Part shown: positions 1 through 58,484 of the stretch, piece by piece
How positions within the stretch are numbered: the stretch's first letter is position 1
Layout of the letters: each line of letters opens with the position of its first letter
Source of the DNA: Cryomorphaceae bacterium
GTDB taxonomy: Bacteria > Bacteroidota > Bacteroidia > Flavobacteriales > Schleiferiaceae
NCBI GenBank assembly: GCA_024639785.1
Contig: JAHEGI010000002.1
Span: 155,803 to 219,802, forward strand
Direction: 5' to 3'
Length of the DNA: 64,000 nt
Made by a program: the position numbers and the translations under genes
The notes under the pieces: model-generated
Databases searched by the model: none
Told to the model about the DNA's origin: nothing
Seen by the model: only the letters and a program-made list of their open reading frames with translations

Positions 1-1224
1 CGCTCTGGTATCTATGGCAATTATGCCTATCATGCGCAGCTTTCAGAGAATTCAGCATTGAGCATGGGGGTAGGGCTAGGCTACGTAAATAACGCCTTTG
101 ACATGGCGTCTGTTCGCGTGAAGAACGAAGGTGACCCCTTCTTGTTCCCTGCAAATCAGAACGGAACGCTTGACATGACGTTAGGTGTGAATTTGCGTGT
201 GGCAGACTTCAACCTTGGCCTCAGTGTGCCTCAGTTACTCAATCCAACCATCACCTACAGTAACAACTACGATGGACCGGTAGCGTATCATTTGATTCGT
301 CATTACGTGGCTCGCACCCAATATGACATCAATATCCAGAAAGACCGCATGGTCCTTTCTCCCATGGTCACGGTACGTGCAGCCGCCTTTGTCAAGCCGC
401 AAGTCGACGCGGGCTTGTTGTTTGACATGAAAGAGTATGGCTACCTCGGTGCTATGTATCGCTCGAATTATGCTGCAACGATCAATGCGGGGGTGCATTT
501 GACTCCCGTGCTTTCTTTGGGCTATGCCCATGAGTTTAGCACCAATACCTATGCGTCTTATTTGGGTATGTCTAATGAGTTTATTCTATCCTACAAGTTT
601 GGTGACAACAACCGCAATGAGCGCATGGAAGCGGAAATCAAGCGTCTCAAAGACAAGCAACGCCAATCTAGCCAAGAGACTGAGAAACTTCTGAATGAGC
701 GATTCGAAGAGTTCAAAGAGGAACTTGGCGCAGCGCAAGTGGCCGAATTGGAAAAGCAAAAAGAAGCGTGGAAAACAGAAGGCTTGCAACTCCAAGAGGC
801 AGGTGCTCAAAATGGTGGCTTGCGTGGAAACCAAAATAGCAACCAAGGCGGAGGCAACAACGATGGCTTTGCTGATGGGGGCTCTTGGGATCAAGGTTCT
901 TCGTCGATGAATAATGGTGGGGCCATCAACAATGAAGGAGCCATCAAAGGTTACCGCAATGATGAATACGCCAACAACGTAGCACCAGGATCACCAGGCT
1001 ACTATGTAACCGCGGGTGTTTATGGCGAAGCAGTCAATGCGGAGCGCATGGCGAGCAGCCTATCCAAAAAAGGAATTACGGCCAAAGTCTTCCGTGACAA
1101 CCGCAACAACATGTACTATGTGTACTTGCTCAAATTCCGCAACTATGAGGGAGCGGATCGTGCGAAGAGTTCAGGCCTAAATGGTCAGTACTCAGGTAAA
1201 CTATGGATCAAGGTGGTTGAGTAA
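1..1224 (+). CDS. PorP/SprF-family outer-membrane protein with SPOR domain (5' truncated by window)
   Basis: The reading frame is open from base 1, so the start lies upstream; an in-frame ATG at 58 is internal because the residues before it (GNYAYHAQ...) already fit the family. Of 407 visible residues, the first ~195 form a PorP/SprF-like beta-barrel region, followed by a charged coiled coil (~200-250), a Gly/Asn-rich linker and a C-terminal SPOR-like domain (~330-407). PorP/SprF proteins are outer-membrane partners of the type IX secretion system; SPOR domains bind denuded peptidoglycan, so this protein probably links the outer membrane to the wall. Its stop overlaps the start of the next gene by one base (TAATG), implying coupled expression with that probable type IX cargo. 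The family call is firm; which secretion event it serves is inference. Confidence 0.85.
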   Translation, partial: RSGIYGNYAYHAQLSENSALSMGVGLGYVNNAFDMASVRVKNEGDPFLFPANQNGTLDMTLGVNLRVADFNLGLSVPQLLNPTITYSNNYDGPVAYHLIRHYVARTQYDINIQKDRMVLSPMVTVRAAAFVKPQVDAGLLFDMKEYGYLGAMYRSNYAATINAGVHLTPVLSLGYAHEFSTNTYASYLGMSNEFILSYKFGDNNRNERMEAEIKRLKDKQRQSSQETEKLLNERFEEFKEELGAAQVAELEKQKEAWKTEGLQLQEAGAQNGGLRGNQNSNQGGGNNDGFADGGSWDQGSSSMNNGGAINNEGAIKGYRNDEYANNVAPGSPGYYVTAGVYGEAVNAERMASSLSKKGITAKVFRDNRNNMYYVYLLKFRNYEGADRAKSSGLNGQYSGKLWIKVVE

Positions 1225-3125
1225 TGGGTAGACTCTTAACCATTATTGCCCTGGGTTTCGGCCTCTTGTGGACCAGTCAAAACGCTCAAGCAGCGCATTT
1301 GGTTGGTGGAGAGATCACCTATACCTGCAATGGGAGCAATAACTACACCATCAAGCTACGTGTGTACCGCGATTGCAATAGTGGCGGAGCGCAGTTTGAC
1401 AATACTGTGACGTTCACCATTTTTGACAACACCGGGGCTCAGCTCTATAACCCGACGGTAAACAAGGGGACGACCATCAATGTCCCCGCGGGAACGGGAA
1501 ATCCGTGTCTGACGACGCCACCGAATATTTGTACGGAATACGCGGATTACGTCCATACCATGACGTTGCCAGCGCGCGTAGGCGGCTACACTATTTCGTA
1601 TCAGCGTTGTTGCCGGAATGCGACAATTTCAAATATCGCAGCGAGTGGCAAGGGCAATACCTACACTGTGCAGATACCTTCTATGGATAACTGCAATAGT
1701 TCTCCGGAATTCACCACTGTCCCGCCGATTGTATTGTGCCTGAATGATTTTCAAAACATCAATTCCTCGGCGACAGATGCTGATGGCGATTCGCTCTATT
1801 ATGAGTTCTGCGACATCCTCAATGGAGGTTCTAGTGGCAATGCCTCTCCAAATCCGGCGGCAGCTCCACCCTACGCGGTAATTCCTTTTATCGCGCCTCA
1901 AACGAGCATCAGCCCTATTCCCGGGAATCCTGCATTGAATATTGATCCCAATACGGGATACATCACGGGTGTCGCGAATACCACCGGCCAGTTCGTAGTG
2001 GGCATCTGTGTGAGTGAATACCGTAATGGAGTGTTCCAGTCCACCGTGCGACGGGATTATCAGTTCAACATCACGAATTGCGTTAGCAATGTAGTGGCGG
2101 ACATGCTTACACAAATCGAAAAGCCGAGCCTCCTATGCGGAGGGCGAACGATGCCATTCCAGGCTCAGACCGGTGGAGCGATTTCCTATTACTGGGACTT
2201 CGGAGACACCACAACGACTCAGGATACGAGTTCATCACCTTCACCATCTTGGACGTATCCGGACACAGGTGAATACATCGTGATGCTGGTGATTAACCCA
2301 GGTTTGGTTTGCACGGATACAGTGTACGAGAGCTTCCATATCTACGATGCGCCAGATTATGTCATCCAGTACGATGGCCAAAGCTGTTTTGAAGCGCAGG
2401 ACATAACCTTCTATGCGAGCGGCTCTACGCCGAGTGATGCCACGTTCTCATGGGATTTTGGCAGCCTAGCCAATGTCTTTGGGGCCACGGGGGATACCGT
2501 GCAACATGTGAGTTGGTCACAACCCGGCAAGTACCCCGTACGCCTCATTGTTTCCTCCCAGACCTGTCCAGATACTACGTTTGATACGATGAATGTAGTG
2601 CAATGGTCGCTGCCTGTGTTCGCAGGGAATGATACGGTGATCGCTCGCGGAGATACGGCCTATTTGAACGTCACATCGGGGGCTTCGTATCGCTGGTTTG
2701 CGGACAAGCCAGCTTATTTCAATAATTATCGCCAGCAAGACCCGCAGGCTTGGACTTATCAAGATTCGACCACTTTCTATGCCATTGTTACGAATTCGGT
2801 GGGTTGTCAAGGCATTGATACTGTCTTTGTGTATTACCTCCCGGATCAAACCTTGCCGGACTTGTCCAATGTCCAAAATGCGATGACGCCCAATGGGGAT
2901 GGCATGAATGATGTGCTAGATCTATCTGAAGTCACCTTTGGGGATCAATGTACTCTCCGCGTACTCAATCGTTGGGGCGGTCAAGTATACCAACAAGACA
3001 ATTATGACGACACCTGGGGTGGCACGAATGTCAATGGGAACCCATTGCCCCCTGGAACGTATTACATTTTATTGCATTGTGACAAGGAACTCCGCTATGG
3101 GGGACCGGTCACGATTGTGCGCTAA
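1224..3125 (+). CDS. Secreted PKD-domain protein with type IX (type B) sorting domain
   Basis: 633 residues. A Sec signal peptide (cleavage near AQAA, ~23) is followed by the AHLVGGEITY opening common in Bacteroidota adhesin-like proteins, a Cys-containing N-terminal region, PKD-like Ig folds (YYWDFGD ~325; FSWDFGS ~410) and a gliding-motility-associated C-terminal domain (TPNGDGMND ~555, then RWGGQVY and GTYYILLHC). That last domain is the type B signal for export by the type IX system, and such cargos typically need a PorP/SprF partner, which is the overlapping upstream gene. Probably a cell-surface structural or adhesive protein; no catalytic motif seen. Transcription likely ends at the hairpin just downstream. 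Confidence 0.88.
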   Translation: MGRLLTIIALGFGLLWTSQNAQAAHLVGGEITYTCNGSNNYTIKLRVYRDCNSGGAQFDNTVTFTIFDNTGAQLYNPTVNKGTTINVPAGTGNPCLTTPPNICTEYADYVHTMTLPARVGGYTISYQRCCRNATISNIAASGKGNTYTVQIPSMDNCNSSPEFTTVPPIVLCLNDFQNINSSATDADGDSLYYEFCDILNGGSSGNASPNPAAAPPYAVIPFIAPQTSISPIPGNPALNIDPNTGYITGVANTTGQFVVGICVSEYRNGVFQSTVRRDYQFNITNCVSNVVADMLTQIEKPSLLCGGRTMPFQAQTGGAISYYWDFGDTTTTQDTSSSPSPSWTYPDTGEYIVMLVINPGLVCTDTVYESFHIYDAPDYVIQYDGQSCFEAQDITFYASGSTPSDATFSWDFGSLANVFGATGDTVQHVSWSQPGKYPVRLIVSSQTCPDTTFDTMNVVQWSLPVFAGNDTVIARGDTAYLNVTSGASYRWFADKPAYFNNYRQQDPQAWTYQDSTTFYAIVTNSVGCQGIDTVFVYYLPDQTLPDLSNVQNAMTPNGDGMNDVLDLSEVTFGDQCTLRVLNRWGGQVYQQDNYDDTWGGTNVNGNPLPPGTYYILLHCDKELRYGGPVTIVR

Positions 3126-3154
3126 GCCTGATATAGGCCCCAAGAAATCAAACA

Positions 3155-3188
3155 AAAAACCCGGTCGTTTCGACTGGGTTTTTTTTGC
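3155..3188. terminator. Bidirectional intrinsic terminator between the PKD gene and dnaJ
   Basis: An AACCCGGTCG / CGACTGGGTT hairpin with a short TTT loop has a T-run on the + side and an A-run on the other side that reads as T on the - strand. It sits between convergent genes and can end transcription both ways. Confidence 0.85.
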
Positions 3189-3220
3189 TTTAGCTCTCCT
3201 GAATCGGGGCGGCATGTGTT

Positions 3221-4333
3221 CTATTGAAACATGTCTTTAACCCGGTCAAAAAAGCCCTTATCCGTCTTTCCAGGGCTGGGTTGGAAATGGGCACTCGCTT
3301 GGAGTTTTTCGAGCATTTCTTTTTCCTCGCCACTGATGGACTTTGGAGTCCATACCGAAACGTGCACGAGCAAATCCCCCGTACCATAGCCTTCAACGCT
3401 AGGTAAGCCTTTGCCTTTGAGGCGAAGCGTTTTACCACTCTGAGTACCTGCTTCGATCTTCATACGCGCCTTTCCTTGGACCGTTGGGATTTCGGCTGTG
3501 GTGCCAAGCGCGACATCAGGAAAAGAGAGGTATAAGTCATAGTGTAGATTCTGCCCCTCCCGCACGAGTTCGGGATGCGCCTCTTCTTCGATGCTAACAA
3601 TCAAATCGCCTGCAGGGCCTCCCACGGGTCCGTGGTTGCCTTTTCCTCCAACGCGGAGCTGCATGCCATCTTGAACTCCCGCGGGAATTTTGACACTGAC
3701 CACCTCTTCTAGACGCTCTAGTCCATCGGCTCCCACTCCGTCAGGCCGCTTATCAATCATTTGACCAGAACCATTACAGCCATGGCAAGCAGATGCCGTT
3801 CGCATTTGGCCCAAAATGGTATTCTGAACCCGGGTGATTTGACCTGAGCCATTACACACGGTACATGTTTTGAATGTCAATCCTTCGGCAGGTACCGCTC
3901 GGCGAATTTTAATCTTCTTTTCGACTCCTCCAACGATATCCTCCAAGGTGAGTTTGACACGGACGCGAAGATTGGCTCCACGGGCAGCGCCGCCTCGGCC
4001 ACCACCTCCACCAAAGCCGCCAAAACCTCCACCGCCAAAGATGTCGCCGAAGTGGCTAAAAATGTCATCCATGTTCATCCCACCGCCAAAACCGCCACCA
4101 CCACCGGGACCAAATGCTTGGTGTCCGAATTGATCGTATTTCTGTTTTTTCTCGGGGTTTGAAAGTACCTCGTACGCTTCAGCGGCTTCTTTGAACTTGT
4201 CTTCCGCAGCAGCGTCCCCCGGGTTTTTATCCGGATGGTATTGAATCGCCAATTTGCGGTAGGCCTTTTTGATTTCTTCAGCCGAGGCTGATTTAGTCAC
4301 GCCTAGTATTTCATAATAATCACGCTTTGCCAT
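3221..4333 (-). CDS. dnaJ: Chaperone DnaJ (Hsp40) lacking zinc centre I
   Basis: 370 residues, co-chaperone that delivers unfolded clients to DnaK and stimulates its ATPase. J domain 1-70 with HPD at 33-35; Gly/Phe-rich linker ~75-118; zinc region; C-terminal substrate-binding domains. Only two of the four CxxCxGxG motifs remain (157-164 and 183-190); the places of motifs I and IV hold no cysteines, so one zinc centre (I+IV) is missing and the other (II+III) is intact, a state I recall from Flavobacteriia. The ATG at 4333 was chosen because it gives the canonical MAKRDYYE start; an upstream in-frame ATG would run into grpE. One base after the grpE stop, so co-transcribed. Confidence 0.97.
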
Positions 4334-5572: not shown

Positions 5573-6889
5573 TTAGGCTGAAATGCGTTCAATTTGGGCA
5601 CCAAGCGCGCGAAGACGTTCGTCAATGCGCTCATACCCGCGATCTATTTGCTCGATGTTGTGAATGGTGCTCGTGCCCTCCGCGGAGAGTGCAGCAATCA
5701 ATAAGGCGATACCTGCACGAATATCCGGTGAGGTCATCGTGGTGGCACGCAAAGGCACTTTGCGGTCAAGCCCGATGACCGTGGCGCGGTGCGGGTCACA
5801 CAAGATGATTTGGGCCCCCATATCAATGAGTTTGTCCACAAAGAAGAGGCGGCTTTCAAACATCTTTTGGTGGATGAGTACCGAGCCCTTTGCCTGTGTG
5901 GCGGTCACAAGTACGATACTCAACAAATCCGGGGTGAAGCCGGGCCAAGGAGCGTCGGCCACGGTAACCATGGAGCCATCCAGATAGGCACCAATTTCAT
6001 ACGACTCTTGCGCAGGAATGTGAATGTCGTCCCCTTGAATATCCAATTGAATGCCCAATTTCTTGAATACCTCCGGAATGACTCCCAAATGAGCCACCCC
6101 TGCATTCTTGATGGTCAAGGCGCTCCGCGTCATTGCGGCGAGACCAATCCATGAACCAATTTCAATCATGTCCGGTAAGCAACGATGCTCCGTGCCTCCG
6201 AGGCGCTCCACGCCATGAATCGTCAAGAGGTTGGAGCCGATCCCTTCAATATTTGCACCCATGCGGACGAGCATGCTGCACAGCTGTTGTAGATACGGTT
6301 CGCAGGCAGCGTTGTAGATCGTGGTGGTGCCTGGGGTGAGGACAGCAGCCATTACAATATTGGCAGTTCCGGTGACGGAGGCTTCGTCCAAAAGCATGTA
6401 GGCCCCTTGAAGTCCGCCCGCGGGAGTTTCCACTCCGTAGAAATGCGAATTCTCTTCGTATTTGAATTCAGCCCCGAGTTTCATGAAACCCAAAAAGTGG
6501 GTATCTAGGCGGCGACGACCAATCTTATCGCCCCCTGGCTTGGGAATATATCCCTTTCCGAATCGGGCCAAAAGTGGACCCACCAGCATGATAGAGCCGC
6601 GGAGGGATGCCCCTTTTTTCTTGTAGGTGTCCGAAAAAAGAAAGTTGACATCAACCTCCTTCGCACAGAAGCTATAATCGCCATGCCCATGCTTGGTCAC
6701 TGCGACGCCAAAGTCTCCCAAAATCTCGATCAACTTGTTCACGTCGACGATATCCGGAATATTAGAAACGCGAACGGTCTCTTCCGTTAACAATACGGCG
6801 CAGAGGATCTGCAAAACTTCGTTTTTGGCCCCTTGCGGATGCACATCGCCTTGGAGGCGAAGTCCCCCTTTGATTTTAAAACTTGACAC
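5573..6889 (-). CDS. murA: UDP-N-acetylglucosamine 1-carboxyvinyltransferase
   Basis: 438 residues, first committed step of peptidoglycan synthesis: transfers enolpyruvate from PEP to UDP-GlcNAc in the cytoplasm. EPSP-synthase fold in two repeats; the substrate residues K22-N23 (GAKNEV) are present. The active-site loop reads GGDKIGRRR, with Asp at 121 where enterobacterial MurA has the Cys that fosfomycin alkylates. Start MSSFKIKGG fits the family. It follows DUF4290 by 12 nt, a Bacteroidota arrangement. Confidence 0.97.
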   Translation of the reverse strand: MSSFKIKGGLRLQGDVHPQGAKNEVLQILCAVLLTEETVRVSNIPDIVDVNKLIEILGDFGVAVTKHGHGDYSFCAKEVDVNFLFSDTYKKKGASLRGSIMLVGPLLARFGKGYIPKPGGDKIGRRRLDTHFLGFMKLGAEFKYEENSHFYGVETPAGGLQGAYMLLDEASVTGTANIVMAAVLTPGTTTIYNAACEPYLQQLCSMLVRMGANIEGIGSNLLTIHGVERLGGTEHRCLPDMIEIGSWIGLAAMTRSALTIKNAGVAHLGVIPEVFKKLGIQLDIQGDDIHIPAQESYEIGAYLDGSMVTVADAPWPGFTPDLLSIVLVTATQAKGSVLIHQKMFESRLFFVDKLIDMGAQIILCDPHRATVIGLDRKVPLRATTMTSPDIRAGIALLIAALSAEGTSTIHNIEQIDRGYERIDERLRALGAQIERISA

Positions 6890-6901
6890 AGGAACTAGGG
6901 A

Positions 6902-7564
6902 TTATTTGCGTTTAAAATTGGTCTTCCGTTTGAAGTTGGGCTTCGCCTTTTTCTTCGTGCGGGTATGCAAGGGGGCGTTTTGAGAGACTACTCCGCGATT
7001 TACTGAGAGGGTCGATTTCTCTTGGCCCAAGCGGCCTGCAGACAGGGTGCGCAATTCCGCATAAATAACGGCATCATCCACATTGTCCTTATTCCAAGAC
7101 AGGTAGGCGCGCTTCATCTGATTGGCAATGTCCAATTCCATTGCATCGCGCTCTTCGGAAGCATCCATGGCGGATACCGTAGAGATAAGATTCTGCAAAA
7201 TATTGCCGTAATAGCGGTGACTCCGACTCTTCTGAGGGTAGGGGACAGCGTCCGGCTTTCCACTCAACTTCTCTCGAGTTGGCGTAGGATACGGACAGTC
7301 TACATCCAGCTCAAAATTGGACATCACGAAGAGATGGTCCCACAATTTGTGCCGGTAATCTGGATTGTCCCGCAATCCCGGGTTCAGGTTGCCGATGACA
7401 TCAATAATACTATTGGCCACCTTGGTCCGGTGTTCACGGTCTGGAAGGGTAATGCAGTATTCAATCATGGACTGCACGTGGCGCCCATATTCGGGCATAC
7501 GCAAGTCCTCCCGGTCCGTGTTATAGTCCAATGCCAATGCGGCAATTTGAGATGTTTCAATCAT
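6902..7564 (-). CDS. DUF4290 family protein
   Basis: 220 residues, predicted cytoplasmic. The N-terminal ~180 residues match the Bacteroidota-specific DUF4290 family (LDYNTDREDLRMPEYGRHV near the start, PGLRDNPDYRHKLWDHLFVM ~60-80, then YPTPTRE). The tail (~195-220) is strongly basic (KKKAKPNFKRK...), which suggests nucleic-acid or ribosome contact but proves nothing. Its start overlaps the uvrD stop by 4 bases and murA follows after 12 nt; this linkage to wall synthesis recurs in the phylum. No function is known to me. Confidence 0.85.
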   Translation of the reverse strand: MIETSQIAALALDYNTDREDLRMPEYGRHVQSMIEYCITLPDREHRTKVANSIIDVIGNLNPGLRDNPDYRHKLWDHLFVMSNFELDVDCPYPTPTREKLSGKPDAVPYPQKSRSHRYYGNILQNLISTVSAMDASEERDAMELDIANQMKRAYLSWNKDNVDDAVIYAELRTLSAGRLGQEKSTLSVNRGVVSQNAPLHTRTKKKAKPNFKRKTNFKRK

Positions 7565-9915
7565 GATAGTAGCTGCAATTTAGCAAACTTGAGGAGCAAT
7601 TTTTTCTCTCCAGCGTTATCAAATACAATAGTGGCTTTTCGCTCGGTGCCATCCCCGGTTAATTCGGTCACTTTCCCGATGCCAAATCGGTCATGAACCA
7701 CCCGCAATCCAACCGCTAAGTCCAAGTCTAAAGCGTGCTGGCTATTTCCAGAAGAGGCCGCTGCTTGCTGCAAGGGTTTTAAGGCAGTAGGTCGGCGAAA
7801 GCGGACTGGAGCAGGAGGGGGAGAGCTCGGTCGTTCCGCCGGCTTCGCAGGGCGAGCTGAGCTCCGCACACCGCTGCGCTGCCGCCCCGAAGGTACATCA
7901 AAGGCATCACGCAATTCTTGGGGTACAGAATAGCTCGGCTGAAACTCAGGAACATGGATTTCTAAGTGCGCCTCGTCCAATTCTTCCAGGAAGCGACTAG
8001 GTTCGCAGTCGATCAGTTTTCCCCAGCGATATCGGACATGGGCATAGGTCAAAAAGGCCCGCTTTTCTGCCCGGGTCAGCGCCACGTAAAATAGACGACG
8101 CTCCTCTTCCAAGTCCGACCTCGATCCCATGGACATCATAGAAGGAAATAAATTCTCCTCCATGCCGACCACAAAGACGGCGGGAAATTCCAAGCCCTTC
8201 GCCAAATGAATGGTCATGAGGTTCACTTTTGGGCGGTCATCGTCGTCGGGGCGATCAGCATCCGTCAAAAGGGCCACATCTTGCAAGAAGGCGCCTAAAC
8301 TGGGATCGCCATCTTCCACCTGCTGTTGTTGCTCCACAAAATCTTTTATCCCGTTCAGCAATTCTTGAACGTTTTCATAGCGGGAAATGCCTTCTGGTGT
8401 TTTGTCATCTGAGAGCATCTTAATCAAGCCGCTACTTCGGGCAATATGCTCTACGACATCAAAGGCATCCTTTTGCTCCGCAATGATTTGGTAGGACTTT
8501 ACGAGATCAATGAATGCCAAAAGTCGCTCCTGCGTAGGCTTGTTGATGTTGACATTCCATTCCCCGGCATGCGCTGCGGCATCCCAAAGACTCGCATTGC
8601 GCTCATTGGCAGCGATCGTCAAACGGGCAAGCGTCGTATCACCAATCCCCCGCGCAGGCAAGTTGATTACACGGCGAAACGCTTCCTCGTCCTTTGGATT
8701 GACCGTTAGGCGCACATACGCCATGAGATCTTTGACTTCTTTGCGCTGATAAAATGAAAGGCCGCCAAAAATCCGATACGGAATGTTCCTTCGACGGAAA
8801 GCATCTTCAAAAGCGCGTGATTGCGCATTCGTGCGGTACAAAATGGCAAACTGATCATGCGGCATGTGCTCGCGCATATTCAATTCCCATATCGTCTGGG
8901 CTACGTAATTGCCCTCATCGGCATCAGAAACACTTTTGTGGACCACAATGCGCTCGCCTTTTGGGTTTTCAGTCCAAACATTTTTCTCCAATTGATCTTG
9001 ATTGTGCTTGATGAGCGAATTTGCGGCCTCCACAATGCACTGACTGCTCCGGTAGTTTTGTTCCAATTTGAACAGCTTCGCGTCCGAATAATCTTTTTGG
9101 AAATTGAGAATGTTTCGAATATTGGCCCCGCGGAAGGCATAAATACTCTGTGCATCATCCCCCACCACACAGAGGTTCTCAAAGCGGGAGGCGAGGGCTT
9201 TGACAATCAGATATTGCGAGTGGTTCGTATCCTGGTACTCGTCCACCAAGATATACTTGAAGCGCTCTTGGTAGCGAGCGAGTGCCTCGGGAAACTTAAT
9301 AAAGAGCTCATTCGTTTTGAGGAGCAAGTCATCAAAGTCCATGGCCCCAGCGCGGAAGCACTTTTCCATGTAGGCGGCGTACAGTTCCCCTAGTTTGGGC
9401 ATCCGCGCCGAAGCATCCGCTTCCTGCAGGTCGGCGCGGCTTTGGTACGCTTTGGGGGTGATCAAATTGTTCTTATAGGATGAGATTCGGCCAGCGACCC
9501 CCTTCACTTTATAAATATCCTTATCCAAATCCCTCTCCTTGATCAGCCCTGCAATCACTTTTTGTGCGTCTTCGCTGTCGTAGATGGTATAATTGGAAGG
9601 GTAGCCCAGGCGATGGCCCTCAATCCGAAGGATGCGCGCGAAAACCGAGTGAAAGGTTCCCATCCATAAATTCTTGGCTTCTGTACCGCCCAAAAGCGCC
9701 TCAATACGCCCCTTCATTTCTCGAGCCGCCTTGTTGGTGAAGGTGAGGGAGAGGATGTTAAATGGATCGACGCCTTTCTCCATGAGGTAGGCAATTCGAT
9801 ACGTCAGTACCCGGGTCTTTCCTGACCCCGCACCAGCAATGACCATAACAGGACCCTCCGTCTGTTGGACAGCTTGCTGTTGGACCGAATTGAGGGCGGA
9901 TAAATAACTGGACAT
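7561..9915 (-). CDS. uvrD: UvrD/PcrA-type superfamily 1 DNA helicase
   Basis: 784 residues. All SF1A motifs are visible: Walker A AGAGSGKT (~27-34), Walker B VDEYQDT, motif III GDDAQSIYAFRGA, motif IV QNYRSS, motif V TIHLAKGLEF (here Leu where SxKGLE is common) and motif VI VALTRA. The C-terminal ~50 residues form the Tudor-like domain (VVHDRFGIGKV) that in PcrA contacts RNA polymerase. It acts 3'-5' in nucleotide-excision and mismatch repair and in clearing stalled complexes. First gene of the operon that continues into DUF4290 and murA; a TACCTTTG box lies 10 nt upstream. Confidence 0.95.
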   Translation of the reverse strand: MSSYLSALNSVQQQAVQQTEGPVMVIAGAGSGKTRVLTYRIAYLMEKGVDPFNILSLTFTNKAAREMKGRIEALLGGTEAKNLWMGTFHSVFARILRIEGHRLGYPSNYTIYDSEDAQKVIAGLIKERDLDKDIYKVKGVAGRISSYKNNLITPKAYQSRADLQEADASARMPKLGELYAAYMEKCFRAGAMDFDDLLLKTNELFIKFPEALARYQERFKYILVDEYQDTNHSQYLIVKALASRFENLCVVGDDAQSIYAFRGANIRNILNFQKDYSDAKLFKLEQNYRSSQCIVEAANSLIKHNQDQLEKNVWTENPKGERIVVHKSVSDADEGNYVAQTIWELNMREHMPHDQFAILYRTNAQSRAFEDAFRRRNIPYRIFGGLSFYQRKEVKDLMAYVRLTVNPKDEEAFRRVINLPARGIGDTTLARLTIAANERNASLWDAAAHAGEWNVNINKPTQERLLAFIDLVKSYQIIAEQKDAFDVVEHIARSSGLIKMLSDDKTPEGISRYENVQELLNGIKDFVEQQQQVEDGDPSLGAFLQDVALLTDADRPDDDDRPKVNLMTIHLAKGLEFPAVFVVGMEENLFPSMMSMGSRSDLEEERRLFYVALTRAEKRAFLTYAHVRYRWGKLIDCEPSRFLEELDEAHLEIHVPEFQPSYSVPQELRDAFDVPSGRQRSGVRSSARPAKPAERPSSPPPAPVRFRRPTALKPLQQAAASSGNSQHALDLDLAVGLRVVHDRFGIGKVTELTGDGTERKATIVFDNAGEKKLLLKFAKLQLLS

Positions 9916-9925
9916 GGAAGGGTTC

Positions 9926-9933
9926 CAAAGGTA
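9926..9933 (-). promoter_or_regulatory. Bacteroidota -7 box for uvrD (TACCTTTG)
   Basis: Exact match on the - strand to TAnnTTTG, ending 10 nt before the uvrD ATG, which predicts a leader of only a few nucleotides. Confidence 0.6.
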
Positions 9934-9985
9934 GCGTTTGGCGATGCGATGAAAAAGTTTGAAAACTGCAATAAAATCAGAATGA

Positions 9986-10012
9986 TTGGTAGGGAAAAAA
10001 GGTCTACATTTG
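9986..10012 (+). promoter_or_regulatory. Promoter of the ribosomal superoperon (TTG ... TACATTTG)
   Basis: A TACATTTG -7 box at 10005-10012 with a TTG at 9986-9988, 16 bases between them. The sequence continues GCAGTCC, the same initial stretch found at the rpsA promoter. The only good promoter seen ahead of the 30-gene block. Confidence 0.75.
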
Positions 10013-10016
10013 CAGT

Positions 10017-10033
10017 CCCCTAAAAACTAGGGG
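10017..10033 (+). promoter_or_regulatory. 5'-terminal hairpin in the rpsL leader
   Basis: CCCCTA / TAGGGG around a 5-base loop, starting about 5 nt after the -7 box, so it would form at the very 5' end of the superoperon mRNA. It may stabilise the transcript or act in leader control; there is no T-run, so not a terminator. Confidence 0.5.
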
Positions 10034-10075
10034 TGTATATTATTGTAGCGACGACAACCAACACAATTAACAAGA

Positions 10076-53242: not shown

Positions 53243-53316
53243 GGCCCGTTCGTCTAGCGGTTTAGGACATCTCCCTTTCACGGAGAAGATCACGGGTTCG
53301 AATCCCGTACGGGTCA
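53243..53316 (+). tRNA. tRNA-Glu (anticodon TTC)
   Basis: 74 nt cloverleaf: acceptor GGCCCGT pairs with ACGGGTC (one G-T), anticodon stem TCTCC/GGAGA with loop CTTTCAC, T-arm CGGGTTCGAATCCCG, discriminator A. CCA is not encoded. Reads GAA and GAG. Confidence 0.98.
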
Positions 53317-53354
53317 CAATTTTTGAACGAATAAAAACTTTGAATTAAGTACTT

Positions 53355-53741: not shown

Positions 53742-54446
53742 ATGCCCTCGCACCCTATCTCCCAATGGCCCATCGAAGATCGTCCGCGTGAAAAATGTCT
53801 CCGTAAAGGCGCACGAGAACTGAGCACTACGGAGTGCATCGCTTTGCTGTTCCGTCATGGGCACAAAGGGGAATCAGCCCTATCCCTGGCACAGCGCCTC
53901 TGGCAGGCCCAAGGCGAAGACCTCCAGCGCCTGGCTAGTACCAACCCCGACACCTGGATGCACGTCGCGGGCTTAGGGCCTGCCAAAGCCGCGGCCTTGG
54001 CCGCGGCATTCGAGCTCGGCCGCCGTATGCAAGCGGGGGAGGGCGGGGGACTTCTGCGCAAAACGGTTCGAAGTAGCGGGGATGGGTTTGCGTTGCTGCG
54101 GCCGAAGCTGGAGGCGCTGGATCACGAGGAGTTTTGGGTGATCTACTTGAGTCGCGCACACCAAGTGCTCCAGATGGACTGTATTGGAAAAGGGGGATGG
54201 ACGGGGACGGTGGCGGATTTGCGGGTCTTGTTTCAGCGCGCCCTGGAATTGCGGGCACCTGCCATATTGGTGGCACACAATCACCCGAGTGGTCGATTGC
54301 AGCCGAGCCCAGAGGATCGGGACTTGACGCAACGCATGATACAAGTTGGTCGATTTTTGGATATCGTTCTATTGGATCATCTCATCGTAGGCCGGGGGGA
54401 TTACGTTAGTTTTGCGGATAAGGGTTGGTTGAATGCCAATCCATAA
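53742..54446 (+). CDS. radC: RadC/YicR-family JAB-domain protein
   Basis: 234 residues. N-terminal helix-hairpin-helix-like UPF0758 domain (~1-100) and MPN/JAB metal-binding domain with HNHPSGRLQPSPEDRDLT (~182-199). Long annotated as a DNA repair protein, though a direct repair role has been doubted; some homologues sit on mobile elements. Here it starts a unit whose next gene follows after 5 nt. Confidence 0.93.
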   Translation: MPSHPISQWPIEDRPREKCLRKGARELSTTECIALLFRHGHKGESALSLAQRLWQAQGEDLQRLASTNPDTWMHVAGLGPAKAAALAAAFELGRRMQAGEGGGLLRKTVRSSGDGFALLRPKLEALDHEEFWVIYLSRAHQVLQMDCIGKGGWTGTVADLRVLFQRALELRAPAILVAHNHPSGRLQPSPEDRDLTQRMIQVGRFLDIVLLDHLIVGRGDYVSFADKGWLNANP

Positions 54447-54451
54447 AAAGT

Positions 54452-56713
54452 ATGATTGCACACATCGTTGGCGCCCGCCCCCAATTCATCAAATTGCTAC
54501 CGCTACATCAGGCTTTGGCCAAGCGGGGGGCACCTCAGCGGGTGCTGCATTCGGGGCAACATTGGGAGCCGGGAATGAGCGAGGTGTTCTTTCAAGAATT
54601 TGGCCTGCAACCGGATCACGTCTTAGCATGGTCCGAGGCACATGAAGAAAATGTGATCGCAATGATGGCGATTCTGGATCGCTGGAAGCCGGATACTGTT
54701 GTGGTGTATGGCGACACTTTTTCTACCTGGTGTGCAGCGAGAGCCGCCAAGCGGTTGGGTTTGGCCTTAGCGCATGTCGAAGCCGGCTTGCGGAGTTTCA
54801 ATGCGGCCATGCCTGAAGAGGAGGCCCGAGTGAAAACCGATACGGTGAGTGATTGGCATTTTGTTCCTTCGGCGCGGGCATTGGCCCAATTGCAACGGGA
54901 GGGATTGGATCGCGGACCAGATCACAGTGTGCTCACAGGTGATATCATGGCAGATGCGTTGATGCAACGTAAGCCCGGTGTGTCGACCCCCGGAAGAATA
55001 TTGGTGACGGTGCATCGGAACACCAATGTGGATGACCCTGTCCTTCGGAAGCGAATTGTCGCAGCCATAGCGAAACTGGCTGAGCGCTTTGAAGTGCACT
55101 GGCCTATTCACCCGCGCTTGCGGGCTCATTTGGAGGAAGAAAACCGCCCGAAGCATATTATCTGGCACCCTCCTCTGGGCCGGGAAGCCCTTTTGGCGCA
55201 GCTAGATGCGGCCGAATGGGTAATAACCGATTCAGGAGGTCTGCAAAAAGAAGCCTATTTCTGCCAACGAAACTGCATTGTGCTGCGCAATGAGACGGAA
55301 TGGGTAGAGCTGATGACTTCGGGACATTCCTGGTTAGTCAATCCAGAAGAATATGGGACTGAAGAGGACCTGTGCCGAGGCTTAGAGGAGACCTTGTCTC
55401 GCGCCACATCGACAAATTTCCCCCCAGTGTATGGGGAAGGTGATGCGGCGGATCGCATGGCGAAGGCTCTTTGGGATGAGGGTGCACGACCGGCCAACCG
55501 ATTGATTCTTCGGGGAGAGTCGGGCAATGCACAACTAGAATTTGCGGCAGAGTTGCTACGTCGGGTCACAGGAATTGGCCTCCAATTTTCGCCTGAAGGG
55601 TCGGAATGGCAGCCCGCGTCATGCTGGGATCGCAACTTCACAGAATGGTCAGGAGCGGAGTTGGGTGAAGATGTTTTAGCCAAAGCAGCCTTTTTGGCCT
55701 CGCGTGCGGAGGAGTTTTCTTCCGATCAACGTGATGCGCATGGGCGCTACCTGCCCGAAGCTTCGGTGCAATGGGAGGCCTTACAACGCCAGCCAGAGAT
55801 TCCCATAGGGCATGTGTATTTAGAAACGTTTGTCCAGCGTTTTCGACCGGAATTTCGATTGTCGGATCGCCGGAGACCCGGCCCTACGGTTGTCATTGAC
55901 ATTGATCATCGCTTTGCTTCTCGAGGTTTTTCTCTGGGTCACCGACTAATGGCCTCCTTCCGGAATTTCTTCTTGGGCCGTTGGACTGAACTACGAGCCA
56001 TGTGGTCGGCGACGGATGCCTTTGATGCGGCGGAGACATTTGATGCGTGGATTCGAACGTATGAAACCGTGCGTTGGCAGTTTTTTGCATGGATTGGACC
56101 GGATCGAGGTCCCAAGGACAAGGGCCCTAGTGTTCGTACAAAGCAGGTGGCTGCGGCGCATGCGGACTGGGCGAAACGGTATCCGAGTACGGGTTTGCAC
56201 CCAACCTATGCGCATCACGATGGAGGACAGCAGGCCCTGAAGAGGGAAGTAATGGCGTGGAAGTCCGCGACTTCGCGCATTTTGCAACGCTCACGCTTTC
56301 ATTATTTACGGATGAATATTCCCCACTCTCAAAAACAACTGCATACGGAGGCTGTTCTAGAAGACTGGAGTATGGAATACGCTAAACACGAAGGATATCG
56401 CGCAGGGGTGGCCGTTCCTTTCCCGGCATGGGGAATGGGGCCCAAGGGCGAGGCGATGGATCGAGACGGCATTCCCTTTATAACCTATGTGCCGGTGGCC
56501 TTGATGGATCAAAATATTTTTCACTTGGAATCGGATGAAATCTCGGCGTATTTACACCGGTGGGATGCCGCAGCGAAATCGCATGGTGCTGCACTTGTTC
56601 TTGCCAGTCATTGGCGCTTTTTTGGTCCCCGTGCGGACTTGTTTTCAGAGACAGCCCAATACGCCGCCTGGAAACAAGGCTTGCAAGAGTTTTTAAATCA
56701 GCACGCTTCATGA
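54452..56713 (+). CDS. UDP-GlcNAc 2-epimerase fused to a polysaccharide-deacetylase-like domain
   Basis: 753 residues from the ATG at 54452 (MIAHIVGARPQFIK), 5 nt after radC. Residues 1-343 are a non-hydrolysing UDP-N-acetylglucosamine 2-epimerase (WecB/MnaA): VGARPQ, VVYGDT (Asp88), HVEAGLRS (Glu110), PEE at 121-123, VTVHRN (His188), TDSGGLQKEA (259-268); this makes UDP-ManNAc. Residues ~350-753 match the long Bacteroidota deacetylase-like proteins of the DUF7033 type: FLASRAEEFSSD, DAHGRYLPEAS, then IDIDH (482-486) and HPTYAHHDGG. Usually these are two proteins. Overlaps the FemAB-like gene by ATGA. Probably makes or modifies a surface glycan containing ManNAc-type sugars; the fusion is read directly from one open frame. 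Confidence 0.85.
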   Translation: MIAHIVGARPQFIKLLPLHQALAKRGAPQRVLHSGQHWEPGMSEVFFQEFGLQPDHVLAWSEAHEENVIAMMAILDRWKPDTVVVYGDTFSTWCAARAAKRLGLALAHVEAGLRSFNAAMPEEEARVKTDTVSDWHFVPSARALAQLQREGLDRGPDHSVLTGDIMADALMQRKPGVSTPGRILVTVHRNTNVDDPVLRKRIVAAIAKLAERFEVHWPIHPRLRAHLEEENRPKHIIWHPPLGREALLAQLDAAEWVITDSGGLQKEAYFCQRNCIVLRNETEWVELMTSGHSWLVNPEEYGTEEDLCRGLEETLSRATSTNFPPVYGEGDAADRMAKALWDEGARPANRLILRGESGNAQLEFAAELLRRVTGIGLQFSPEGSEWQPASCWDRNFTEWSGAELGEDVLAKAAFLASRAEEFSSDQRDAHGRYLPEASVQWEALQRQPEIPIGHVYLETFVQRFRPEFRLSDRRRPGPTVVIDIDHRFASRGFSLGHRLMASFRNFFLGRWTELRAMWSATDAFDAAETFDAWIRTYETVRWQFFAWIGPDRGPKDKGPSVRTKQVAAAHADWAKRYPSTGLHPTYAHHDGGQQALKREVMAWKSATSRILQRSRFHYLRMNIPHSQKQLHTEAVLEDWSMEYAKHEGYRAGVAVPFPAWGMGPKGEAMDRDGIPFITYVPVALMDQNIFHLESDEISAYLHRWDAAAKSHGAALVLASHWRFFGPRADLFSETAQYAAWKQGLQEFLNQHAS

Positions 56714-57615
56714 AGTGGGTTGAAGGTACCTGGACTTCGGAAGCCTGGGCGGAGCTCGTGAAGCATTCTCCCTGGGATTTCCCCTATGATCGTGAGGGGT
56801 ATGCAGATGCCCTAGGTCAAAATTGGGCTGCCATGATGGATACGGGCTTTGCTTTGCCTTTGGCCTATCGAAAAAAATGGGGGATGTGGACGGGCTACCT
56901 CCCCTTCGGGATGCAGCAATGGGGCCCAATAGGTCCAAAGAGTGCCTCAACGGCTTCGCTTTGTGCCGCCGTGGAGGCCATTCCAGGTCGATTGACCAAA
57001 GTTGACATCGCTATGCATCGGCCAGAAGATTGGCAACCGCTCTCCTCCCAATGGAAGCGTAAAGGTCTGCGTTTGGAGCGATGGACGGAACAGCCCAATT
57101 ATGTCTTGGACATAGGCGCATCCTACGAACAAGTATATGCAGGGTATAGCAAACAGACGATTCGCAACCTCAAGGCGAGCCAACAAAGTGGGATGACGGT
57201 TTTTGAACATGACACCCCCGATGTGCTTTTACATGCTTTCAAAGCCAATCAGGCGGAACGTTATGCGGTTCCTGCCGGTTTTGAGCCAGCGATTCGGGCT
57301 GCCATGTACCATTTGCTCCATCAGGGTCGCGGTGCACTTTGGTCCGTTTATGGGGAGGGAAATCGCTTTTTAGCCGGTGCCTTTATTGCCTTTGCCGGAA
57401 ATCGGGCGGTCTTGCTTTTTTCCGCGATTTCTGACGAAGGACGTCAACGTCAAGCGATGACTTACCTCCTGAATGAAGTGTTGACCTATGCCTGTGGGCG
57501 TTGGACATGCTTTGATTTTGAGGGAAGTAAATCGCCTGGGCTCGCTCGTTTTTATGCGGGTTTTGGAGCCAAATTGGAGCCCTTCTTGCGATACCAACGT
57601 TGGGCCATACGATGA
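56710..57615 (+). CDS. FemAB/GNAT-like acyltransferase
   Basis: 301 residues from the ATG at 56710, which overlaps the previous stop by 4 bases. Two-lobed GNAT-like fold: YVLDIGASYEQVYAGYSKQTIRNLKAS (~135-160) and, in the second lobe, LAGAFIAFAGNRAVLLFSAISDEGRQRQAMTYLL (split ~222-260) with DFEGSKSPGLARFYAGFGA near the end. FemAB-type enzymes use aminoacyl-tRNA or acyl donors on peptidoglycan or lipid-linked sugars. Placed behind the epimerase/deacetylase fusion, it may acylate the same glycan. Confidence 0.85.
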   Translation: MKWVEGTWTSEAWAELVKHSPWDFPYDREGYADALGQNWAAMMDTGFALPLAYRKKWGMWTGYLPFGMQQWGPIGPKSASTASLCAAVEAIPGRLTKVDIAMHRPEDWQPLSSQWKRKGLRLERWTEQPNYVLDIGASYEQVYAGYSKQTIRNLKASQQSGMTVFEHDTPDVLLHAFKANQAERYAVPAGFEPAIRAAMYHLLHQGRGALWSVYGEGNRFLAGAFIAFAGNRAVLLFSAISDEGRQRQAMTYLLNEVLTYACGRWTCFDFEGSKSPGLARFYAGFGAKLEPFLRYQRWAIR

Positions 57616-58484
57616 CGCTTACTCAGTTAGACTACTTCATCGCTTTGGCGGAACATCGCAATTTTAGCGCGGCGGCAAAAGCCTGTGGGGTCAGTCAGCC
57701 CACCTTAAGTGCGCAATTTCATAAGCTCGAAGAGGAACTCGGGCATACTCTGGTGGATCGCAAGTGTCAGCCTTTAGAACTCAGCTCGATGGGGCAGTCA
57801 TTGCTGGAACAGGCGAAGCGCACCGTCCATAGTGCAGGACAAATTCACCAGATGGTGGATCAATTTGAACATCCATTGACGGGACAACTTCGACTGGGGA
57901 TGGTGGCTCCTTTATCCAAAAAGCTAGGGCCAGGCTGGATTGCCCAATGTCAAAGAACTTTTCCCGCGTTGGATCTTCAGGTATTTGAGGCGAATAGCAC
58001 CGAGTTGCAGCAGATGATGCAGCAAGCGGAACTTGATGCAGCGATTCTTCCCATGGATAGCTGGAAAGGACAGGGTCAAAATTTAGCCTCCTTCGAAGAG
58101 GCATGGTGGGCCCTAGGGCCGGCGATAAACGCCACGCCACCTCCGCTGGCTGATGCGGCATCCTGGGTATTTGGGTCAGAGATGCAAGAGGCTGCGCGGT
58201 ATGCTCTGAGTCAAGGCTACGTGGCACCAGAGTCCAACGTATTCCTGTCGAATTCCGTGGCGAGCCGGGTCGCGGTGGCCGAGCGGCTGGGTAGATGGCT
58301 GCTTATTTCAGAAACAGAACTGGATAGTTTCGGGCTAGCGCTCCAAAAGCGTGCCCAGAAATGGCCAGGGCCACCTCGAACCTTAGGTTGGATTCGGGGA
58401 GTCCATGCCCGAAATCAAGCGCTCCAATCCCGGCTTCTTGCGATGGTTTGCAATGATGCAAGCGAAGGGATGGAGCAGGCCTAG
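57612..58484 (+). CDS. LysR-family transcription regulator
   Basis: 290 residues from the ATG at 57612, overlapping the FemAB-like stop by 4 bases. N-terminal winged helix-turn-helix (FSAAAKACGVSQPTLSAQ ~19-36), linker helix, then a LysR substrate-binding domain. It resembles OxyR-type regulators at the N-terminus but has no Cys pair in the redox positions, so peroxide sensing by disulfide is unlikely. The target could be the preceding glycan genes or the convergent DASS transporter; unknown. Confidence 0.88.
   Translation: MTLTQLDYFIALAEHRNFSAAAKACGVSQPTLSAQFHKLEEELGHTLVDRKCQPLELSSMGQSLLEQAKRTVHSAGQIHQMVDQFEHPLTGQLRLGMVAPLSKKLGPGWIAQCQRTFPALDLQVFEANSTELQQMMQQAELDAAILPMDSWKGQGQNLASFEEAWWALGPAINATPPPLADAASWVFGSEMQEAARYALSQGYVAPESNVFLSNSVASRVAVAERLGRWLLISETELDSFGLALQKRAQKWPGPPRTLGWIRGVHARNQALQSRLLAMVCNDASEGMEQA

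What the first reader, a model, noticed from the sequence alone, without database searches (positions are those of the whole stretch)
55484..56713. Fusion of UDP-GlcNAc 2-epimerase with a long deacetylase-like domain, coupled to a FemAB-like enzyme
Seen: one uninterrupted frame of 753 codons holds a complete WecB-type epimerase (1-343) and a DUF7033/deacetylase-like region (~350-753); ATGA overlaps join it to a FemAB-like gene and then a LysR gene. These two enzyme types are normally separate. Inference: the fusion would couple formation of UDP-ManNAc with N-deacetylation of the same or a downstream sugar, and the FemAB-like enzyme could acylate the freed amine, giving a three-step modification of a surface glycan.
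Basis: partly seen in the sequence, partly recalled or inferred. Interest (0 to 1): 0.6.

Follow-up and report, generated by a model that had tools for sequence, protein, structure and literature searches.

The report
Fused sugar enzyme for protein anchoring
In one lineage of small Bacteroidota genomes, two enzymes that in other bacteria act on the sugar attaching secreted proteins to the cell surface have become a single protein, encoded right beside the enzyme predicted to add the final amino acid.

Summary
Bases 54452-56713 encode one intact 753-aa protein, a 2-epimerase (1-343) joined to a deacetylase-like domain (~351-753), with ATGA overlaps into a FemAB-like gene and then a LysR gene. 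Eleven other genomes of the same genus carry the same fused gene (one copy frameshifted). Nine more carry the halves as adjacent genes overlapping by 4 nt; one is cut by a contig end. So it is a real, derived gene fusion, not a sequencing error. The halves match WbpI (UDP-GlcNAc3NAcA 2-epimerase) and VimE (N-deacetylase), and the FemAB-like gene matches VimA, of the Wbp/Vim pathway. That pathway makes the sugar linking type IX secretion system (T9SS) cargo to lipopolysaccharide in Porphyromonas and Tannerella. Candidates for WbpA, WbpB, WbpE and WbpD, the PorU sortase and 33 T9SS cargo C-terminal domains occur in the same genome. The deacetylase half has a confident CE4-type model, and its catalytic-type residues are invariant in 48 homologues. 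Verdict: a new fused variant of a known pathway. Activities and the sugar's identity are inferred.

The parts
54452..56713 (+). wbpI::vimE fusion gene, 753 aa, one open frame
   Evidence: same fused frame in 11 other genomes of the genus, one frameshifted
54452..55480 (+). N-terminal half (residues 1-343): non-hydrolysing UDP-sugar 2-epimerase, WbpI-like; D88 catalytic base, Y86 and W284 the UDP-GlcNAc3NAcA-type positions
   Evidence: Pfam PF02350; best PDB 8sxv/8sxy 199 bits; structural Z 43 to 8sy0; residues
55502..56713 (+). C-terminal half (residues ~351-753): VimE-like CE4-type N-deacetylase
   Evidence: NCBIfam VimE NF053580 E 1.2e-9, DUF7033, AF2 model pLDDT 95 with CE4 fold Z 14-15
55898..55906 (+). 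D483-I-D485: putative catalytic base and metal ligand
   Evidence: both Asp invariant in 48/48 homologues
56198..56200 (+). H583, putative metal ligand
   Evidence: invariant 48/48
56294..56302 (+). R615-x-H617, putative active-site motif
   Evidence: both invariant 48/48
56609..56611 (+). H720, putative catalytic acid
   Evidence: invariant 48/48
56710..57615 (+). VimA-like FemAB/GNAT-fold acyltransferase, 301 aa, ATGA overlap with the fusion gene
   Evidence: Pfam Acetyltransf_6; 26% identity over 170 aa, E 2e-11, to the FemAB-like gene beside a bona fide vimE in L149
57612..58484 (+). LysR-type regulator, ATGA overlap with the vimA-like gene
   Evidence: Pfam HTH_1 and LysR_substrate; conserved position in the genus and in sister genera
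53742..54446 (+). radC, conserved upstream neighbour, ends 5 nt before the fusion gene

Best explanation
The gene encodes a cytoplasmic WbpI-VimE fusion that most likely carries out two consecutive late steps of the Wbp/Vim linking-sugar pathway. WbpA, WbpB, WbpE and WbpD would make UDP-2,3-diacetamido-2,3-dideoxyglucuronate (UDP-GlcNAc3NAcA). The N-terminal half would epimerise C2 to the manno form, and the C-terminal CE4-type half would remove the 2-N-acetyl group. The adjacent VimA-like enzyme would then put an amino acid on the freed amine. The product would be the sugar to which the PorU sortase joins T9SS cargo C-termini. Shown: the fusion, its conservation, the family of each half, conserved active-site-type residues, and co-occurrence with pathway, sortase and cargo genes. 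Inferred: the enzymatic activities, the order of steps, the manno configuration, the amino acid, and the final acceptor.
For: The only VimE-type match in NCBIfam is to the second half. The epimerase half is closest in sequence (199 bits) and in fold (Z 43.4, 2.1 A) to the UDP-GlcNAc3NAcA 2-epimerase of Thermus, and has the diagnostic Trp and Tyr. The VimE half gives a pLDDT 95 model with CE4 deacetylase neighbours such as ArnD and chitin deacetylases, and D483, D485, H583, H617 and H720 are invariant in 48 homologues. The FemAB-like protein is homologous to the VimA candidate in a bcp-recA-vimA-vimE cluster. The same genome holds a WbpE (best PDB hit WbpE), a WbpB candidate (best hits 3q2i/3q2k, known to me as WlbA), a WbpD candidate (best hit 3mqg, known to me as WlbB), a WbpA-type dehydrogenase, PorU (1097 bits) and 33 T9SS C-terminal domains over the cut-off. 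No asparagine-synthase family gene passes its cut-off, as in T. forsythia, whose linking sugar is an unamidated mannuronic acid (PMC7468200). Sister species have wbpI-vimE-vimA as separate overlapping genes in the same order. The genome has only one epimerase match.
Against: The VimE half scores far below the NCBIfam VimE equivalog cut-off (37 versus 440 bits). One of three published specificity positions is not met: Leu15 stands where the Thermus enzyme has Ala18. Identity to the reference VimA is low (26%), and the FemAB Pfam model is below its cut-off. The wbp genes are scattered over the genome, not clustered. No activity, sugar structure or cargo modification has been measured in this group.
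Confidence: 0.74

Rival explanations
1. One reading: a WecB-type UDP-GlcNAc to UDP-ManNAc epimerase fused to a glycan deacetylase, serving a general surface polysaccharide.
For: The epimerase half belongs to the Epimerase_2 family and matches the wecB model at 182 bits; Leu15 is the UDP-GlcNAc-enzyme state.
Against: Below the wecB cut-off of 210 bits. Trp284 replaces the arginine conserved in UDP-GlcNAc enzymes. Nearest solved structure is a UDP-GlcNAc3NAcA enzyme in sequence and fold. VimE- and VimA-like partners and wbpA/B/D/E candidates are in the genome.
Confidence: 0.07
2. Same Wbp/Vim-like chemistry, but the aminoacylated diaminouronic acid goes into an O-antigen or exopolysaccharide rather than linking T9SS cargo.
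For: Veith et al. report vimA/vimE homologues with full wbp clusters in Vibrio, Aeromonas and Pseudomonas, which belong to other systems (PMC7468200); the wbp genes here are not near T9SS genes.
Against: PorU and 33 T9SS C-terminal domains are in the same genome.
Confidence: 0.14
3. The deacetylase half is catalytically dead and only scaffolds the epimerase or VimA.
For: The VimE half is divergent (roughly 17-32% identity to split homologues outside its own clade).
Against: All metal-site-type and catalytic-type residues are invariant in 48 homologues, including every fused copy examined.
Confidence: 0.03
4. The fusion is an assembly or sequencing artefact.
For: The genome is a draft of 22 contigs.
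Against: Eleven other genomes carry the same fused frame at 41-79% identity, one with a later frameshift, several recovered independently under different public project names.
Confidence: 0.01

Closest known systems
Wbp/Vim linking-sugar pathway of Tannerella forsythia and Porphyromonas gingivalis (Veith et al. 2020, PMC7468200)
   Same: Same enzyme types: Wbp enzymes, predicted WbpI-type epimerase (T. forsythia), VimE deacetylase, VimA aminoacyl-transferring enzyme; T9SS with PorU present; no asparagine-synthase family gene over cut-off, as reported for T. forsythia.
   Different: WbpI and VimE are one polypeptide; vimA lies downstream behind an ATGA overlap next to radC and a LysR gene rather than recA; sequences are highly divergent; no biochemistry in this lineage.
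UDP-2,3-diacetamido-2,3-dideoxyglucuronate 2-epimerase of Thermus thermophilus HB27 (PDB 8sxy, PMC10622841)
   Same: Fold (Z 43), catalytic Asp, Trp307 and Tyr96 equivalents.
   Different: Leu15 instead of Ala18; carries a C-terminal deacetylase domain.
CE4 carbohydrate esterases (ArnD 8t0j, chitin deacetylases 5z34, M. smegmatis deacetylase 3rxz)
   Same: Deacetylase fold with conserved Asp/His set.
   Different: 10-17% identity; distinct motifs (D-x-D, H-P-x-Y, R-x-H) and an N-terminal DUF7033 segment.
FemAB-type aminoacyl transferases / VimA
   Same: Acetyltransf_6 domain and homology to the FemAB-like gene of a vim cluster.
   Different: FemAB Pfam model below cut-off; donor and amino acid unknown.

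Membership tests
Non-hydrolysing UDP-sugar 2-epimerase (PF02350) | Epimerase_2 domain with the conserved catalytic residues | tested here: met
   239 bits versus cut-off 30.6; D88, E110, E123, H188 and others conserved in 71/71 rows
WecB (TIGR00236) | Score above the curated equivalog cut-off of 210 bits | tested here: not met
   182.1 bits
WbpI-type UDP-GlcNAc3NAcA 2-epimerase | Trp in place of the C3'-binding arginine (Trp307 of T. thermophilus) | tested here: met
   W284
WbpI-type UDP-GlcNAc3NAcA 2-epimerase | Tyr in place of His/Gln near C6' (Tyr96) | tested here: met
   Y86
WbpI-type UDP-GlcNAc3NAcA 2-epimerase | Small residue Ala18 | tested here: not met
   Leu15; Leu in 53 of 71 rows of the alignment, which counts some loci twice
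WbpI-type UDP-GlcNAc3NAcA 2-epimerase | Activity on UDP-GlcNAc3NAcA | not testable with these tools
   needs an enzyme assay
VimE (NCBIfam NF053580 equivalog) | Score above the curated cut-off of 440 bits | tested here: not met
   37.3 bits; only 1 of 395 Bacteroidota genomes passes
VimE superfamily (DUF7033 plus CE4-type domain) | DUF7033 domain, shared invariant residues, CE4-type fold | tested here: met
VimA | FemAB/GNAT-like protein encoded with vimE | tested here: met
VimA | Transfers an amino acid to the deacetylated amine | not testable with these tools
   needs an assay or mass spectrometry
Wbp/Vim pathway | wbpA, wbpB, wbpE and wbpD-type genes in the genome | tested here: met
   identified by nearest solved structures, WbpA and WbpB the least specific
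T9SS with PorU-mediated cargo attachment | PorU sortase and cargo C-terminal domains | tested here: met
   PorU 1097 bits; 33 TIGR04183 matches over cut-off

The most novel reading that the evidence does not exclude
The fusion is a channelling device: epimerisation, which is reversible and needs UDP-GlcNAc as activator in the Thermus enzyme, is pulled forward by hydrolytic deacetylation within one protein. This would fix WbpI as the step directly before VimE in making a manno-type linking sugar, possibly bearing an amino acid other than the published Ser or Gly.
Probability: 0.35. Interest if true: 0.5.

Novelty: new variant of a known kind. Interest (0 to 1): 0.42.

Why it matters
Veith et al. 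state that the position and specificity of WbpI in the linking-sugar pathway are unknown (PMC7468200). A lineage that fused WbpI to VimE, in the order wbpI-vimE-vimA, argues that the two enzymes act in succession on the same nucleotide sugar, and offers one soluble protein to test it with. It also suggests that this type of linking-sugar pathway reaches well beyond the two oral species in which it was worked out: VimE relatives occur in 112 of 395 Bacteroidota genomes sampled.

Tried and rejected
Sequencing error at the junction: rejected by 11 other genomes with the fused frame. Fusion across the whole order: not seen; among 396 genomes of the order, long fused frames appear only in this genus, but the search listed only E <= 1e-60, so weaker ones could be missed. 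A second long VimE frame (G117, 901 aa, L150) carries no epimerase: its first ~530 residues match no Pfam family. Independent second fusion in G042 (long branch): the tree needs one change, but support for one fused side is only 70/64, so a second event is not excluded. G044 could not be scored because its contig ends inside the vimE tail. WbpS (amidotransferase): no Asn_synthase match over cut-off in the genome. Literature: no paper held describes this fusion; a search for 2-epimerase + polysaccharide deacetylase + fused + FemAB found none, and the searches tried are few.

Full report
What is there. The window's strand + holds one open frame from ATG 54452 to TGA 56713, 753 codons. Residue 345 begins at 55484, so the finding's coordinates mark the second half. 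Downstream, the stop codon overlaps the ATG of a 301-aa FemAB-like gene (56710-57615), whose stop overlaps the ATG of a LysR-type gene (57612-58484). Upstream, radC ends 5 nt before the fusion gene. The window lies in a 1.82 Mb, 22-contig genome. Named public records with close relatives of the fusion are labelled Schleiferiaceae, Cryomorphaceae or Flavobacteriales MAGs.

The fusion is real and lineage-specific. Of 22 genomes of the genus, 12 (this one included) carry the two domains in one gene; in one of these, G053, a frameshift breaks the gene in its second half. Nine carry adjacent wbpI-like and vimE-like genes, and one (G044) is cut by a contig end inside the vimE tail. In the split genomes wbpI ends in ATGA, GTGA or a near variant that is also the start of vimE. 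In sister genera the genes are separate but in the same neighbourhood, radC-wbpI-vimE-vimA-LysR. A tree of six neighbouring genes needs a single change between split and fused, though the branch uniting the fused side has weak support (70/64) and G042 sits on a long branch.

First half. Pfam Epimerase_2 matches at 239 bits. The wecB equivalog model gives 182 bits, under its cut-off of 210. The nearest solved structures by sequence (199 bits, against 150 for the next family member) and by fold (Z 43.4, rmsd 2.1 A over 336 residues) are UDP-2,3-diacetamido-2,3-dideoxyglucuronate 2-epimerases of Thermus. The paper on that enzyme names three positions that accommodate the bulkier sugar: Trp307 for a conserved Arg, Tyr96 for His/Gln, Ala18 for Leu/Met (PMC10622841). 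Here they are Trp284, Tyr86 and Leu15: two of three. The catalytic Asp (D88) and other active-site residues are kept. This favours UDP-GlcNAc3NAcA over UDP-GlcNAc as substrate but does not prove it.

Second half. The only NCBIfam deacetylase match is VimE, E 1.2e-9 but 37 bits against a cut-off of 440; DUF7033 passes its cut-off. In 48 homologues from Bacteroidota, including a gene that passes the VimE cut-off by a wide margin (G434, 675 bits), D407, R432, D483, D485, D556, H583, R615, H617, G648, R650, P681, M685 and H720 are invariant. AlphaFold2 gives a model of mean pLDDT 95. Its best structural neighbours are CE4 deacetylases: 3rxz Z 14.7, ArnD Z 14.3, chitin deacetylases about 14. From knowledge of CE4 enzymes, the D-x-D pair plus His residues fit a base, metal ligands and an acid; this assignment is an inference, since no coordinates could be measured. 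The full-length fusion models at pLDDT 94 and pTM 0.93, which suggests a defined packing of the two domains.

The FemAB-like neighbour. It matches Acetyltransf_6 above cut-off and FemAB below. In G434 the order is bcp-recA-FemAB-like-(PIG-L-like)-vimE-two glycosyltransferase-like genes, which I recognise as the vim operon layout known from Porphyromonas gingivalis. The window's protein is 26% identical to that FemAB-like protein over 170 aa (E 2e-11). It is therefore VimA-like; the amino acid it would transfer is unknown.

The rest of the pathway. In the same genome I found a WbpE whose best solved relative is WbpE itself, a dehydrogenase nearest 3q2i/3q2k, which I know as WlbA/WbpB enzymes, an acetyltransferase nearest 3mqg, which I know as WlbB, the WbpD counterpart, and a WbpA-type nucleotide-sugar dehydrogenase. 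They are scattered over contigs C7, C17 and C20. PorU is present at 1097 bits, with 33 T9SS C-terminal domains over the cut-off. No Asn_synthase domain passes its cut-off, in line with T. forsythia, where the sugar stays a uronic acid.

How it most likely works. Veith et al. deduced that T9SS cargo is joined to 2-N-seryl,3-N-acetylglucuronamide in P. gingivalis and 2-N-glycyl,3-N-acetylmannuronic acid in T. forsythia, with VimE removing the C-2 acetyl and VimA adding the amino acid, and left WbpI's position open (PMC7468200). The fusion and the gene order wbpI-vimE-vimA suggest that here UDP-GlcNAc3NAcA is epimerised, then deacetylated, then aminoacylated. Coupling a reversible epimerisation to a hydrolysis would pull it forward; this benefit is my inference. 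None of the activities has been measured in this lineage.

Judgement. The enzymes and the pathway are known; the fused form, as far as the few searches of held papers show, is not described. I rate it a new variant of a known kind.

Noticed in passing
L150 (G117:C1:220000-233000), 6317-9022 (-): A 901-aa frame with a VimE-type domain at 536-872 and about 530 N-terminal residues with no Pfam match: a different, unidentified VimE fusion.
   Followed up: partly
L149 (G434:C56), 8190-8825 (-): A PIG-L-like deacetylase frame (recognised by eye, no domain search) sits between the vimA and vimE genes in the one genome whose VimE passes the NCBIfam cut-off.
   Followed up: no
L089 9985-10386 (-); gaps in L091 3087-3431 and L092 1412-1785: In sister genera there is a gap of 345-413 nt between wbpI and vimE; in G030 it holds a 133-aa frame without any NCBIfam match. 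It is absent in the window's genus.
   Followed up: partly
L181 (G053:C297) 771-3067: The fused gene is broken by a frameshift in its second half in this low-coverage MAG.
   Followed up: no
window 53742-54446 and related loci: radC is next to or near vimE in several Bacteroidota families, with or without wbpI between them, for no obvious functional reason.
   Followed up: no
L083 (own genome C7:76001-96000), 2051-3784 and 8890-10071: bcp and recA, the neighbours of vimA in the Porphyromonas-type operon, lie about 5 kb from the wbpE candidate in the window's own genome; may be coincidence.
   Followed up: no
window 53243-53317: The only tRNA gene found in the window, tRNA-Glu (ttc), lies between the 220-aa gene and radC.
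   Followed up: no
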